DNA of 64,000 nt from Acidobacteriota bacterium (GTDB lineage Bacteria; Acidobacteriota; Terriglobia; UBA7540), in NCBI GenBank assembly GCA_021838785.1, contig JAKCCV010000019.1, positions 16,710-80,709 of the forward strand. The letters run 5' to 3'. Positions 27,094-31,528 of the stretch are shown here, piece by piece (the first letter of the stretch is position 1; the number at the start of each line of letters is the position of its first letter). The translations under genes were made by a program, and so were the position numbers. Under the pieces are notes generated by a model. It was not told where the DNA came from, ran no database searches, and worked only from the letters and a program-made list of their open reading frames with translations.

Positions 27094-27122
27094 TTGACTT
27101 TCGCTTTTTTTTCGCCTATCCT
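27094..27122 (+). promoter_or_regulatory. Candidate promoter of the RadB-like/PolB cassette
   Basis: TTGACT (27094-27099) and TATCCT (27117-27122) with a 17-base spacer containing a T8 run. The first gene of the cassette starts 78 bases downstream behind GGAGG. Confidence 0.5.
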
Positions 27123-27199
27123 TCTTACCTGGGGCTGGAAAAGCGGCCGCGTGATGAAAATTGCGGCGCCACGGCCAAGAAGGTGCCCGGAGGTCCACC

Positions 27200-27883
27200 A
27201 TGTTCTCCAACGAGTCACAAGCGATGCCCAGGCCGATGCGTGCAGGGTCTGGTGGGTGCGCGGTGTCGGCGACGGCTCCTTCTGCTCCGGTGCGCCGCGC
27301 CCCGTGGACGTTGCCGACGCAGGGTCTGGCGGTTTTCCACGGGGCGTGCGACACGGCGCGGCTGAGCCACTATTTTTTGCCGCGACTGATTTTGTCGGGC
27401 CAGCGCGTGCTGGTACTCGACGGAGCCAACTCAGCCGACCCGCGATTGATGGCGCGGCTGGCGCGCGAGCGCGGCATGACGTTTGATGCTTTCAGTCGTC
27501 AAATCCAAATTGCGCGCGCCTTCACCTGCTTTCAGCTCACCGAGCTCACGGCGCGGCTGCCGCGCTGGGTGGCGGAGTTTCCGGCGAAGGTCTTAATCGT
27601 CACGGCGCTGCCCGAGCTTTACTTCGACGAAGACGTACGAGATGGCGATGCGCACGCGGCGTTCGAGCAAGCGCTCCGCCATCTGCGACGCTGGGCGACG
27701 GAGCAAGGCGCGGTGGCCGTCTTTTCTTCCGCTGTGAACTTTGCGCCTTCGGCGGGGCGGCGGAGCTTTTTCCCGCGCCTGGCCGCGGCGGCGAACGAAG
27801 CCTGGGAATTCCAGGTGGATGAAAACGGCCGCATGACGCCGGGGCCGCTGCCGCGGGGGAGCTTTCCATCCCTTGCCCAATAA
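27200..27883 (+). CDS. RecA/RadB-like protein with degenerate P-loop
   Basis: The ATG at 27200 has GGAGG six bases upstream, giving 227 residues. The fold pattern is that of RecA/RadA core ATPases: GLAVFHGACDTARLSHYFL in the P-loop position, QRVLVLDGANSADPRLMARL as strand plus VVYIDTE-like element, QIQIARAFTCFQLTELTARL (archaeal RadA/RadB read xxARAxxxxH/Q here), AKVLIVTALPELYF as Walker B strand, and QGAVAVFSSAVNFA. The lysine and serine/threonine of Walker A are absent (GACDTARLS), so ATP binding is probably lost. It leads a cassette with a small protein and a family B polymerase. The RecA-like assignment is from pattern only. Confidence 0.6.
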   Translation: MFSNESQAMPRPMRAGSGGCAVSATAPSAPVRRAPWTLPTQGLAVFHGACDTARLSHYFLPRLILSGQRVLVLDGANSADPRLMARLARERGMTFDAFSRQIQIARAFTCFQLTELTARLPRWVAEFPAKVLIVTALPELYFDEDVRDGDAHAAFEQALRHLRRWATEQGAVAVFSSAVNFAPSAGRRSFFPRLAAAANEAWEFQVDENGRMTPGPLPRGSFPSLAQ

Positions 27884-27889
27884 AATGCC

Positions 27890-28243
27890 ATGGGCCGAAC
27901 CCTCGCCACATTTCGCGACTTGATTGAGCAAGAGATGCAGAACTGGGAGCGTGTCTTTGGGCGGGCGCTGCGGCGGGAAGAGCGCGTGCACTTTGAGGCC
28001 ATGTTCCAACGGGTGCGCCTCTATGTGCAGGCCTGTACGCATCAATCCTCCGTGCACGCCATGGACGCCATCAACGTGGCCATCGGCTTGGACCACGAAA
28101 TTCGGCTGCGCGCGATTGAAGCGCGTTTAGGAATCAACCTTGCGACTCAGTGGATGGATTCTCGACCTTTACCCGTCCGCGGAGGGGATGACGCTGTGGC
28201 TGATCCCGCAGAACGGCAATCCCCAACGCCGTCGGCTGATTGA
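27890..28243 (+). CDS. Small helical protein of the RadB-like/PolB cassette
   Basis: 117 residues, seven bases behind the RadB-like gene and overlapping the polymerase gene by 104 bases. The first ~85 residues are strongly helical and charged (FRDLIEQEMQNWERVFGRAL, EERVHFEAMFQRVRLYVQAC, MDAINVAIGLDHEIRLRAIE); the last 30 (RPLPVRGGDDAVADPAERQS) are low-complexity and lie in the overlap, so that tail may be little constrained. I recognise no family. Its position between two DNA-repair-like genes suggests a bridging or clamp-adaptor role, which is inference. Confidence 0.6.
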   Translation: MGRTLATFRDLIEQEMQNWERVFGRALRREERVHFEAMFQRVRLYVQACTHQSSVHAMDAINVAIGLDHEIRLRAIEARLGINLATQWMDSRPLPVRGGDDAVADPAERQSPTPSAD

Positions 28244-30434
28244 TCCCTCCTTTCACCCGCGCTTCTACGCGCGCGGTCCGCAGGCGGCGCTGGAGCGGCT
28301 GGCGGCGGAATTGGCACGGCGCGCTCCGGTAAGGTGCGCCTTCACCGAGAAGCAGGACCTCTGGGAAGGCCCGGTCACGGTGCTGGAAGTTACGGTACAT
28401 TGTCCCGCGCAGTTCGCGGCGCTCGCGCGCCTGGCTCGCCGCGCCCCAAGTTCGCTTCGCCTCTATAACACCGACCTGATGCTGGCAGCGGTCTATAGTT
28501 GGGAGAAAAAGGTTTTCCCACTGGCTCAGGTGGAAGCGGAGGTGGAAGGAGACCGCCTCCGCGCCCTGGCTGGCCGCGACGATCCTTGGCGCGTAGATTA
28601 CGAATTGCCGCCGCTCGGCGTGATGCAGGCGCGCCTGGAGGGTCTGGACCGCGTGGACCCGCAGCACGGGCGACGCGGGGCGCTCGAAGTCGCGCATGAG
28701 GGCGAGTGGCAAATTTTGGATGACGCCGATGAGCCGGTGGCGGCGGGCTTTGAGCGCCTCTTGCGCACTTGGGACCCCGACCTCATCGTCACCGAATGGG
28801 GCGATGCCACGCTGCTGCCCGGACTGATGCGGCAGGCGCGGCGGTGCGGGTTCGAGCTTTCGCTCAACCGCGACCACGCTCCGGCCGAACGCCATCGCGC
28901 CCGCAGCTACACGAGCTACGGCCGCGTGCTCTTCAAGGCCAGCGCTACCACGCTGCGGGGGCGCCTGCACGTGGATATTCGCAATTCCTTCATCGCCCAT
29001 GCGTGCGAGCTGGACGGCCTATGGGAGCTGGCGCGCGTCACCAAGCTGCCCGTGCAATATTGCGCCCGCACCAGCACGGGCACCGGCATTTCCTATCTCC
29101 AGATGGAACTGGCCTGGCGTGATGGACTGCTGATTCCGGAGCAGAAGGCCGAGCCGGAATCACCCAAGCACCCGGACGAATTGCTACGAGCCGATCGCGG
29201 CGGGCTGGTGTTTCCGCCGCGCTTGGGATTTTTCTCGAATGTGGCCGAACTCGATTTTGTGAGCGAGTTTCCCAGCATCATGGCGCGCTTCAACGTCTCT
29301 CCAGAAACGGTCAACTGCCGCTGCTGTCCGGACGCTCCGCGCGTGCCGGAGCTGGGTTATCGCATCTGTCAGAAGCGCCGTGGCCTGACCGGCCGCGTGG
29401 TGGAGCGACTGATTGCCAAGCGCGGAGAATACAAGCGGCGCATGATCCTGGCGCCGGACGGCTCGAACTCGGCTTCGCCCGGGCGGTTCCTTTCGCCCGT
29501 TGAGTGGAACTCCTACGCGCAGCGGCGTTCGGCCCTCAAGTGGCTGCTGGTCTGCTGTTTCGGTTACACCGGCTACAAGAACGCGCGCTTTGGCAAGATT
29601 GAGGCGCATGAGGCCATCAACGCCCTGGCGCGAGAAAAACTGCTTGCGGCCAAGGAAGCCGCGGAGGCGCGCGGCTACCGCGTGCTGCACGCGCTGGTAG
29701 ATTCGCTCTACGTCGAGCGCGAAGGTGCGACGCGCGCGGACTACGAATGCCTGGCGAGGGAGATCGAGCGGCTCACCGGTTTGCCGCTGGCTCTGGAGGC
29801 GGTTTACCGTTACGTGATTTTTCTGCCCTCGAAACAGAACCCGGAAATTCCCGTGCCCAACCGCTTCTTCGCCGTCGCGGAAGACGGCACGCTGAAGGTT
29901 CGCGGCCTGGAGTGCCGCCGGCATGACACGCCGCCGCTGGTAGCGCGAATGCAGGAAAAGGTTTTGGAGATTCTGGCGGAGGCGCGCGACCAGGAGACTT
30001 ATGCGCAGAAGCTTGAAGAAGCGCGGCGAGTGCTCGAACGGTATCTTGAGCGCATCGAAGCCGGCAGCGTGCCGGCGGAGGAGTTGGTCATCAGCAAGCG
30101 GCTTTCACGCCTGCCCTCGAACTACCGCCAAGCCAGCCAGGTGGCCATCGCGGCTCAGCAACTCGACCGCTCCGGCGTGCGCCTGCGAGCCGGCGAGACC
30201 ATCGAATACATTCTCACTTGTGCTGGCGCCAAGCTGGCTGACGATCGCGTGCGCGCCTACACGTTGTGGGAAGGCTGGCGAGGCTATGATGCCGCCGCTT
30301 ACCGTGCCGCGCTGCTCGACGCTTTTCAGCCGTTCGAGTTTTTCGCGCCAACGCCGGACCACGGGGCGAGCGCCGCACCGCACCCTCAGACCTGCACCGC
30401 GACGCTGGTTTCCGTGCGGATGACCGGACGATAG
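28140..30434 (+). CDS. Family B DNA polymerase with degraded exonuclease and altered motif C
   Basis: 764 residues from a TTG at 28140 (in-frame stop at 28128; next ATG at 28188 would cut conserved N-terminus). Motif A is LDFVSEFPSIMARFN (D372). Motif B is RRSALKWLLVCCFGYTGYKN (K467). Motif C is HALVDSLYVE: the second Asp (D521) stays but the first Asp of Y-G-D-T-D-S is Leu. KVRGLECRRHDTPP (586-599) is the conserved thumb-proximal motif. The exonuclease looks dead: Exo I reads VMQARLEG instead of FDIE, and Exo II reads WGDATLLP instead of N-G-D-x-F-D. The gene overlaps mqnE convergently by 49 bases. Likely an accessory repair polymerase rather than replicative. Confidence 0.9.
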   Translation: MRLSGWILDLYPSAEGMTLWLIPQNGNPQRRRLIDPSFHPRFYARGPQAALERLAAELARRAPVRCAFTEKQDLWEGPVTVLEVTVHCPAQFAALARLARRAPSSLRLYNTDLMLAAVYSWEKKVFPLAQVEAEVEGDRLRALAGRDDPWRVDYELPPLGVMQARLEGLDRVDPQHGRRGALEVAHEGEWQILDDADEPVAAGFERLLRTWDPDLIVTEWGDATLLPGLMRQARRCGFELSLNRDHAPAERHRARSYTSYGRVLFKASATTLRGRLHVDIRNSFIAHACELDGLWELARVTKLPVQYCARTSTGTGISYLQMELAWRDGLLIPEQKAEPESPKHPDELLRADRGGLVFPPRLGFFSNVAELDFVSEFPSIMARFNVSPETVNCRCCPDAPRVPELGYRICQKRRGLTGRVVERLIAKRGEYKRRMILAPDGSNSASPGRFLSPVEWNSYAQRRSALKWLLVCCFGYTGYKNARFGKIEAHEAINALAREKLLAAKEAAEARGYRVLHALVDSLYVEREGATRADYECLAREIERLTGLPLALEAVYRYVIFLPSKQNPEIPVPNRFFAVAEDGTLKVRGLECRRHDTPPLVARMQEKVLEILAEARDQETYAQKLEEARRVLERYLERIEAGSVPAEELVISKRLSRLPSNYRQASQVAIAAQQLDRSGVRLRAGETIEYILTCAGAKLADDRVRAYTLWEGWRGYDAAAYRAALLDAFQPFEFFAPTPDHGASAAPHPQTCTATLVSVRMTGR

Positions 30435-31528
30435 AGCGTATCGCGCTCCATGGGCTCAAGCCCGGCCTCATGGATGAGCCGGATGATTTGCTGGCGGGTC
30501 ATGGTCTGCGGAGTCTTGGCGCCGGCATCGTGGTAAATCTTTTCCTCGACGACCGTGCCGTCCAAATCATTTGCGCCGAAGCGCAACGCCACCTGGGCCA
30601 CGCGCGGCGTCATCATAATCCAATACGCTTTGATATGCGGGAAATTGTCGAGCAGTAGCCGCGCCACGGCGATGTTTTTTAAATCCATGAAGCCGGTAGT
30701 TTCCGGCCAGGGCACGCGCCGGCCCAGCTCCGTGTTGGCGGGATGAAACGCCAGCGGAATGAAGGTGCGAAAGCCGCCCGTCTCATCTTGCAAAGCGCGC
30801 AACTGCAACAGATGATCCACGCGATCTTCCGCCGACTCAATGTGACCGTAAAGCATGGTCGCGGTCGAGGCCAGGCCCATTTCGTGGGCGATGCGATGCA
30901 CCTTCAACCAGGTGTACGCCCCGATTTTGTGGTCGCAGATCACGCGCCGCACCGCCGGAGCAAAAATCTCCGCTCCGCCGCCCGGCAGCGAATCGAGGCC
31001 GGCGGCCTTTAACCGCTCCAGAATTTCACGAATCGAAAGCTGCGTGATGTGCGAGTAATAGGCAATCTCGACGGCCGTGAAGGCTTTGAGATGAACCTGG
31101 GGAAAGCGCTCCTTCAACCCTCGCAACAAGTCCACGTAATATTGAAACGGCAGGTCCGGATGCAGACCGCCCACAATGTGGAACTCGGTCACCGCCTCTG
31201 ACCAATTCTCTCCCGCCACGCGAAAGGCTTCCTCCAGCGCCATCGTGTAGGCGCCCGGAGCGTCCGGCTTCCGCCCAAACGCGCATAGCTTGCAACTGGC
31301 CACGCACACGTTGGTCGGATTGAGGTGCCGGTTGACGTTGAAGTAGGTCCGGTCTCCGTGCCGTTTGTGGCGGACATAGTGCGCCAGCCAGCCGAGGGCC
31401 AGCAAGTCATGGGAGCGATATAAGCCGACGCCGTCTTCAAAGCTCAGGCGCTCACCCGCTCTTACCTTTTCGGCGATTGGTCGCAGCGCGGCGTCTTCAA
31501 TGCCAGGATCCTTCATCGGCTCAGCCAT
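30386..31528 (-). CDS. mqnE: Aminofutalosine synthase (radical SAM)
   Basis: 380 residues. NPTNVCVASCKLCAFGR holds the radical-SAM CxxxCxxC. EFHIVGGLHPDLPF, VHLKAFTAVEI, LDSLPGGGAEIFAP, TMLYGHIES and FGANDLDGTVVEEKIYH are MqnE hallmarks; the sister enzyme MqnC differs in several of these. The enzyme joins 3-((1-carboxyvinyl)oxy)benzoate to SAM giving aminofutalosine, so menaquinone is made by the futalosine route. No other mqn gene is adjacent. Confidence 0.92.
   Translation of the reverse strand: MAEPMKDPGIEDAALRPIAEKVRAGERLSFEDGVGLYRSHDLLALGWLAHYVRHKRHGDRTYFNVNRHLNPTNVCVASCKLCAFGRKPDAPGAYTMALEEAFRVAGENWSEAVTEFHIVGGLHPDLPFQYYVDLLRGLKERFPQVHLKAFTAVEIAYYSHITQLSIREILERLKAAGLDSLPGGGAEIFAPAVRRVICDHKIGAYTWLKVHRIAHEMGLASTATMLYGHIESAEDRVDHLLQLRALQDETGGFRTFIPLAFHPANTELGRRVPWPETTGFMDLKNIAVARLLLDNFPHIKAYWIMMTPRVAQVALRFGANDLDGTVVEEKIYHDAGAKTPQTMTRQQIIRLIHEAGLEPMERDTLYRPVIRTETSVAVQV

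What the first reader, a model, noticed from the sequence alone, without database searches (positions are those of the whole stretch)
27094..30434. Three-gene cassette: P-loop-less RecA/RadB-like protein, small helical protein, atypical family B polymerase
Seen: one promoter-like site, gaps or overlaps of +6 and -104 bases, and three same-strand genes. The first has RecA/RadA-like strands but GACDTARLS where Walker A should be. The third keeps motif A (DFVSEFPSI) and motif B, but motif C is HALVDSLYV (first Asp lost) and both Exo I and Exo II catalytic residues are replaced. Known: the ImuA-ImuB-DnaE2 mutasome pairs a RecA-like non-ATPase with an error-prone polymerase, and archaeal PolB2/Dpo2 enzymes have deviating motifs. 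Inference: this is a polB-based analogue of that mutasome, a translesion or damage-tolerance module with a polymerase that lacks proofreading.
Basis: partly seen in the sequence, partly recalled or inferred. Interest (0 to 1): 0.82.

Follow-up and report, generated by a model that had tools for sequence, protein, structure and literature searches.

The report
SOS-linked PolB2 mutasome operon, Acidobacteriota
This stretch holds a known three-gene set (a RadA-like protein without an ATP site, a small helper and an archaeal-type DNA polymerase) that likely copies past damaged DNA, and its promoter carries the same DNA signal as the gene for the predicted damage-response repressor LexA.

Summary

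Three points go beyond what I found in print. (1) TTCGCTTTTTTTTCGCCTA lies between -35 and -10. The same direct repeat precedes lexA in 29 of 32 genomes with a clear LexA and the cassette in 15 of 16; it is likely the LexA operator. (2) In other genomes of the order it precedes imuA of imuA-imuB-dnaE2 (5 of 8, a sixth with 2 mismatches). None of 40 genomes carries both PolB2 and ImuB, but a tree-based test gives no support. (3) This 98%-complete genome has no Y-family match and one DnaE, so PolB2 is likely its only dedicated lesion-bypass polymerase.

LexA binding, induction and mutagenesis are untested.

The parts
27094..27099 (+). -35 hexamer TTGACT
   Evidence: sequence; of the 15 cassette promoters with the repeat, 11 have TTGACT, 3 TTTACT and 1 ATTACT at this place
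27100..27118 (+). predicted LexA operator TTCGCTTTTTTTTCGCCTA, a direct repeat TTCGC-N6-TTCGC lying between -35 and -10
   Evidence: same repeat before lexA in this genome and 28 others; only full match in the 64 kb window, next best 4 mismatches; 3 sites of the AT-rich form in the whole genome, 0 in the reversed control
27117..27122 (+). -10 hexamer TATCCT, 17 bases from the -35
   Evidence: sequence; TATNNT in 12 of the 15 promoters, TACNNT or TAACAT in 3
27189..27194 (+). Shine-Dalgarno GGAGGT before iRadA
   Evidence: sequence
27200..27883 (+). iRadA: RadA/Rad51-fold protein (predicted), 227 aa, without Walker A
27890..28243 (+). PPB2 (arCOG07300-like) small partner, 117 aa, begins MGRTLATFR
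   Evidence: MGRT in 9 of 9 aligned proteins, Arg-9 in 8 of 9; motif described in PMC11791011
28140..30434 (+). PolB2: B-family polymerase with decayed exonuclease and motif C LHALVDSLY, 764 aa, TTG start
   Evidence: Pfam DNA_pol_B E 6.7e-27; NCBIfam PRK05761 subfamily E 3.4e-112, below its curated cut-off; PDB archaeal PolB E 4e-42
28140..28243 (+). ppb2/polB2 coding overlap, 104 nt
   Evidence: overlap of 68-104 nt in 24 of 26 loci examined (18 distinct; L014 and L057 gave no measurement); lowest synonymous variation of the gene

Best explanation
This is a bacterial iRadA-PPB2-PolB2 operon whose three proteins are predicted to form a DNA-damage-induced lesion-bypass complex (a mutasome), likely switched on by LexA through a direct-repeat operator in its promoter. 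Shown here: the three genes, their family-level residues, the predicted RadA fold of the first, conservation of the trio, and the repeat shared with lexA. Predicted in print for the family: one PolB2, one iRadA and three PPB2 assemble, with iRadA docked on the polymerase as in a RadA filament and the MGRT arm of PPB2 near the active site. Inferred for this genome: damage makes LexA cleave itself and leave the operator, the operon is expressed, and PolB2, which lacks proofreading, extends mismatched or lesion-opposed primer ends that DnaE1 cannot extend, causing mutations. Since no Y-family polymerase and only one DnaE were found, PolB2 would be the main or only polymerase for this task here.
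For: Family match of PolB2. RadA fold of the iRadA model. Trio conserved in order (PolB2 in 21 and iRadA in 19 of 40 genomes of the order). Published family features met: order iRadA-PPB2-PolB2, MGRT, lost first Asp, lost ATP site. Operator: shared with lexA (29 of the 32 genomes with LexA over the family cut-off) and found within 2 mismatches in 15 of 16 cassette promoters against 0 of 8000 shuffled ones; 132 sites against 6 for the reversed pattern over 40 genomes. Genomes with a lexA match have the box in 33 of 34 cases, those without in 3 of 6 (Fisher 0.008). The same box lies next to imuA, DUF72 and Rv2578c-type radical SAM genes. No Y-family match in this genome. S. islandicus Dpo2, a PolB2, extends mismatches and has no exonuclease (PMC8764526, passages).
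Against: No bacterial PolB2 had been assayed in anything I read. LexA binding to the repeat was not tested; the repeat overlaps the promoter core and could in part be a shared promoter type. recA promoters were not examined, and recA was not among the neighbours I named. One cassette promoter of 16 (G415) lacks the box, and so does the distant G389 cassette. Of 8 imuA loci, two (G424, G419) show no box within 2 mismatches in the stretch held, and in G406 it has 2 mismatches. For the radical SAM gene, DUF72 and the five strict imuA cases the repeat lies on the opposite strand. 38 of 132 box sites have no recurrent neighbour. The PolB2 model failed (pLDDT 51), and no complex could be modelled. 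S. islandicus Dpo2 copies undamaged DNA with high fidelity, so 'error-prone' means mismatch extension.
Confidence: 0.86

Rival explanations
1. The cassette is a PolB2 operon, but PolB2 is catalytically dead and acts as a structural or regulatory partner, like ImuB in the DnaE2 mutasome or as first proposed for archaeal PolB2 in 2014.
For: First Asp of motif C lost in 9 of 9; PMC4104785 read the family as inactivated.
Against: The second Asp of motif C and the motif A Asp are kept in all 9, and S. islandicus Dpo2, a member of the family with the first Asp replaced (PMC11791011), is a robust polymerase. The genome shows no DnaE2 or Y-family polymerase for a scaffold to serve.
Confidence: 0.08
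2. The shared repeat is a strong constitutive promoter type or the site of another regulator, and the cassette is not under SOS control.
For: The repeat fills the space between -35 and -10; no binding data; not all cassettes or imuA genes have it; 38 of 132 sites have no recurrent neighbour.
Against: Few copies per genome (3 in this one, 14 at most), unlike a general promoter; recurrent neighbours are lexA, both mutasomes, DUF72, a DinB-superfamily gene and an Rv2578c-type radical SAM gene. Three of the four genomes without the box also lack a detected lexA.
Confidence: 0.12
3. The cassette is a passive relic of horizontal transfer without present function.
For: Patchy: 21 of 40 genomes in the order, 2 full-length matches among 396 genomes of the phylum sample; one genome, G425, keeps only iRadA.
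Against: All three frames are open, core residues are invariant across relatives at 60-85% identity to the window's PolB2, and the repeat is kept in 15 of 16 promoters.
Confidence: 0.03

Closest known systems
PolB2 mutasome PolB2-PPB2-iRadA (Timinskas et al. 2025, PMC11791011; operon described in Makarova et al. 2014, PMC4104785)
   Same: All three proteins, gene order iRadA-PPB2-PolB2, MGRT arm, lost first Asp of DxD, inactive exonuclease, inactive RadA, a link to lexA and DUF72
   Different: Here lexA is on another contig; the link is a shared promoter repeat. PPB2 and PolB2 genes overlap by about 100 nt. The sliding-clamp motif is unclear.
Dpo2 of Sulfolobus islandicus (PMC8764526, passages; PMC7390963 seen as listing only)
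   Same: PolB2 family, exonuclease dead, first motif C Asp replaced; damage-inducible in Sulfolobales
   Different: Archaeal; per PMC11791011 archaeal neighbourhoods are enriched in orc1/cdc6 and bacterial ones in lexA
ImuA-ImuB-DnaE2 mutasome
   Same: RecA-like partner plus error-prone polymerase; in 5 of 8 imuA loci of this order the same promoter repeat is found (a sixth with 2 mismatches)
   Different: Polymerase is C-family and the scaffold an inactive Y-family protein (general knowledge and PMC12926913); ImuA of these relatives matches RecA clearly (E 3e-20) while iRadA matches Rad51 only weakly (E 0.005)
Pol V (UmuD'2C-RecA)
   Same: Architectural parallel proposed in PMC11791011
   Different: Y-family polymerase, active RecA, UmuD'; no Y-family match in this genome

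Membership tests
PolB2 mutasome operon (bacterial G2 group) | B-family polymerase domain | tested here: met
   Pfam DNA_pol_B E 6.7e-27; PDB archaeal PolB E 4e-42
PolB2 mutasome operon (bacterial G2 group) | First Asp of motif C DxD replaced (as in most members), second kept | tested here: met
   LHALVDS in 9 of 9
PolB2 mutasome operon (bacterial G2 group) | 3'-5' exonuclease site lost | tested here: met
   ExoII residues differ in the HMMER alignment (target chain is itself altered at one of them); no Pfam exonuclease match at E 1; ExoI by position only
PolB2 mutasome operon (bacterial G2 group) | Conserved D(K/R) before the palm | tested here: inconclusive
   ADRGG in 9 of 9, but not aligned to the S. 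islandicus 253-DK-254
PolB2 mutasome operon (bacterial G2 group) | Adjacent RadA homologue without ATPase site | tested here: met
   RadA fold of the model; Walker A absent in 8 of 8
PolB2 mutasome operon (bacterial G2 group) | Small PPB2 with N-terminal MGRT | tested here: met
   MGRT in 9 of 9; its helical fold was not modelled
PolB2 mutasome operon (bacterial G2 group) | Gene order iRadA-PPB2-PolB2 | tested here: met
PolB2 mutasome operon (bacterial G2 group) | Tree placement with bacterial PolB2 | not tested
   No named archaeal PolB2 sequences were fetched; an NCBIfam PRK05761 model is the best match but below cut-off
PolB2 mutasome operon (bacterial G2 group) | Clamp-binding motif in PolB2 or iRadA (only a fraction have it) | tested here: inconclusive
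   PolB2 tail has AFQPFEFF; the Gln is kept in 3 of 9
PolB2 mutasome operon (bacterial G2 group) | Heteropentamer, damage-induced, lesion bypass | not testable with these tools
   needs complex modelling or bench work
ImuA-ImuB-DnaE2 mutasome | Second DnaE (DnaE2) and ImuB | tested here: not met
   One DnaE and no Y-family match in this genome
LexA/SOS regulon | Operator shared with lexA promoter | tested here: met
LexA/SOS regulon | LexA binding and damage induction | not testable with these tools
   bench work

The most novel reading that the evidence does not exclude
In this order of Acidobacteriota the SOS response has one mutasome slot that two unrelated machines fill in turn: an archaeal-derived PolB2 complex or ImuA-ImuB-DnaE2, each behind the same new LexA operator (a TTCGC-N6-TTCGC direct repeat), with at least one genome (G425) caught mid-swap, keeping an orphan, still LexA-boxed iRadA beside a full imuAB-dnaE2. 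In the window's lineage the swap left PolB2 as the only dedicated lesion-bypass polymerase.
Probability: 0.42. Interest if true: 0.68.

Novelty: new member of a known kind. Interest (0 to 1): 0.45.

Why it matters
The cassette itself is known, so the finding confirms published predictions in a phylum that my term searches did not find named in the main texts of the three papers on it (figures and supplements not seen). What would matter is the exchange. If PolB2 and ImuA-ImuB-DnaE2 replace each other under one operator, they do the same job, and the proposed mutagenic role of bacterial PolB2 becomes testable: delete it where it is the only lesion-bypass polymerase, or compare close relatives that carry one or the other. 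The repeat also gives a handle on the SOS regulon of uncultured Acidobacteriota, including DUF72 and Rv2578c-type radical SAM genes.

Tried and rejected
AlphaFold of PolB2 on 9 close relatives gave pLDDT 51 and pTM 0.31; not used. A search of the order of G389 found PolB2 in 1 of 10 genomes (G389 itself) and was not followed. The other 27 matching genomes of the phylum sample score at most 91 bits against 603 and 1435 for the two full-length ones and were taken as other B-family polymerases without further test.

PolB2 against ImuB/DnaE2 was first counted with partial genes included: 2 both, 21 cassette only, 8 Imu/DnaE2 only, 9 neither, of 40; Fisher 0.009; in the 18 best genomes 1, 11, 5, 1, Fisher 0.004. 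Of the two 'both', G425 has iRadA alone (no PPB2 or PolB2 match in the 7.5 kb held around it), and G398 (80% complete, 6% contaminated) has a PolB2 fragment plus a separate lexA-PolY-DnaE cluster with no ImuB seen. Counting the PolB2 gene against an ImuB-like gene gives 0, 21, 8, 11 (Fisher 0.001) and, in the 18 best genomes, 0, 11, 5, 2 (Fisher 0.002). These tests ignore ancestry. On a DnaE1 tree of 36 genomes, independent pairs gave no support (median p 1; only about 4 of 9-10 pairs differ in the second trait, too few to reach 0.05), so exclusion is a pattern, not a proof.

Dual coding in the ppb2/polB2 overlap: synonymous change is lower there (0.36 against 0.48; 5 of 671 windows as low), but the first codons of a gene are often constrained for translation, so I do not claim a function for the PPB2 tail.

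A wider box pattern (TTCGC-N6-TTCGCC) gave 5 sites in this genome against 10 for its reversed control: that form is not significant. Only the AT-rich form is (3 against 0 here; 132 against 6 over 40 genomes). 38 of the 132 sites were not assigned to a recurrent gene (29 lexA and 12 cassette sites, 53 others). Literature: seven full-text searches (only the top 6-20 titles of each were seen) showed no statement of this repeat as a LexA box nor of PolB2/ImuB exchange; Mazon 2006 on the Acidobacterium capsulatum LexA box was seen only as a title in a reference list, so overlap with it is not excluded.
Full report
WHAT IS THERE. Three same-strand genes follow one promoter: iRadA 27200-27883, PPB2 27890-28243, PolB2 28140-30434. 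The finding's start at 27094 is the -35 hexamer. The TTG start of PolB2 is supported because relatives L007 and L011 have ATG at the same place and L005 one codon on.

POLYMERASE. The third protein matches Pfam DNA_pol_B (E 6.7e-27), an NCBIfam archaeal-type PolB model (E 3.4e-112 but below that model's cut-off) and archaeal PolB structures (E 4e-42). Nine aligned proteins all keep the motif A Asp and the second Asp of motif C and lack the first (LHALVDS). ExoII residues differ in the alignment to a Pyrococcus PolB (that chain seems itself altered at one ExoII residue), and no exonuclease family was matched. ExoI loss is read from position only.

DISTRIBUTION. Of 11 homologous loci in named records, 7 hold the trio, one (L004) holds it cut at a contig edge, and three matched PolB2 only, in part. 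Profile searches found PolB2 in 21 of 40 genomes of the order (four of these matches are partial) and iRadA in 19 of 40. Among 396 genomes of the phylum sample, 29 matched but only two over the full length: the window's own and G389.

OPERATOR. Upstream of lexA in 29 genomes, this one included, lies a near-invariant direct repeat, TTCGCcTTTTaTTCGCCTA, running into a TATAAT-like -10 (25 of 29 rows match in full, and in the other four my 160-base cut clipped the first half). By the strict pattern the repeat precedes lexA in 29 of the 32 genomes with LexA over the family cut-off; G416, G420 and G430 lack it. The same repeat lies between -35 and -10 of the cassette (27100-27118). Of 16 genomes with enough upstream sequence, 15 have it within 2 mismatches; none of 8000 shuffled upstreams does. 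G415 lacks it. Two further genomes, G404 and G416, have it before iRadA at contig ends. Over 40 genomes there are 132 sites against 6 for the reversed pattern. Recurrent neighbours: lexA (29 sites) and the cassette (12 sites, plus those two), an Rv2578c-type radical SAM gene (26 genomes), DUF72 (12 genomes), a DinB-superfamily gene (8 genomes) and imuA (5 genomes). 38 sites are unassigned. In this genome the three sites are lexA, the cassette and the radical SAM gene. Box and lexA go together: 33 of 34 genomes with a lexA match have a box, 3 of 6 without. The spacing of 11 equals that of the GTTC-N7-GTTC repeat quoted for alpha-proteobacteria in PMC3323433 (passages), which also cites a paper on the Acidobacterium capsulatum LexA box (title seen only). 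That LexA binds the repeat is inferred.

TWO MUTASOMES, ONE SIGNAL. In eight genomes without a PolB2 gene an ImuB-like gene was found. Its imuA has the strict repeat, on the opposite strand, in five (G407, G410, G411, G425, G426) and the repeat with 2 mismatches in G406; G424 and G419 show none within 2 mismatches in the stretch held. No genome of 40 has both a PolB2 gene and an ImuB-like gene: 21 PolB2 only, 8 ImuB only, 11 neither; Fisher 0.001; in the 18 best genomes 11, 5, 2; Fisher 0.002. Within the window's own genus two genomes have PolB2, a third, G419, has ImuB, and a fourth (57% complete) shows neither. G425 has imuA-imuB-dnaE2 and a lone iRadA that still has a box with one mismatch. 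Against this: incomplete genomes, one doubtful genome (G398) with a PolB2 fragment and another DnaE cluster, and a tree-based test that finds no support because too few independent pairs differ. The window's genome has no Y-family match and one DnaE; 16 of the 18 best genomes do have a Y-family match.

OVERLAP. ppb2 and polB2 overlap by 68-104 nt in 24 of 26 loci examined (18 distinct; L014 and L057 gave no measurement). Synonymous change in the overlap is the lowest of the gene, which fits dual coding or a translation-start constraint.

MECHANISM. Shown: genes, residues, predicted RadA fold, conservation, shared repeat. Predicted in print: the pentamer. Inferred: LexA release on damage, PolB2 extension past lesions without proofreading, and mutation as the result.

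Noticed in passing
window 30386-31528 (-): mqnE (aminofutalosine synthase, NCBIfam TIGR03700 over cut-off) is convergent with polB2, and the two coding ends overlap by 49 nt.
   Followed up: partly
G000:C1:165-181 and gene at C1:191-1219 (L161): Rv2578c-type radical SAM gene with the predicted LexA repeat 9 bases before its first possible start, repeat on the opposite strand; the same arrangement in 26 genomes.
   Followed up: partly
L166, L170, L218 and nine further loci: DUF72 genes carry the predicted LexA repeat within a few bases of their first possible start codon in 12 genomes (L218 confirmed as DUF72); DUF72 is also reported near polB2 in PMC11791011.
   Followed up: partly
L300 (G425:C72:5000-12500): Orphan iRadA with LexA-like box (1 mismatch) but no PPB2 or PolB2 match beside it, in a genome with imuA-imuB-dnaE2.
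   Followed up: partly
L262 (G398:C612): A DUF72-like gene, a second LexA-like gene, a Y-family polymerase and DnaE pieces in one cluster, which looks like a separate DnaE2-PolY type module.
   Followed up: no
L003, L004, L010 (iRadA and/or PolB2 genes); P0050, P0053, P0055: In-frame low-complexity inserts (such as GWGLGTG-like and ETRNSK-like words) sit inside otherwise conserved iRadA and PolB2 proteins of relatives.
   Followed up: no
L190, L196, L236, L240, L254: ImuA of these relatives has a GxxSSGRT-like stretch where I would expect Walker A and, in the two tested, a clear RecA match, so it may not be dead like most ImuA.
   Followed up: no
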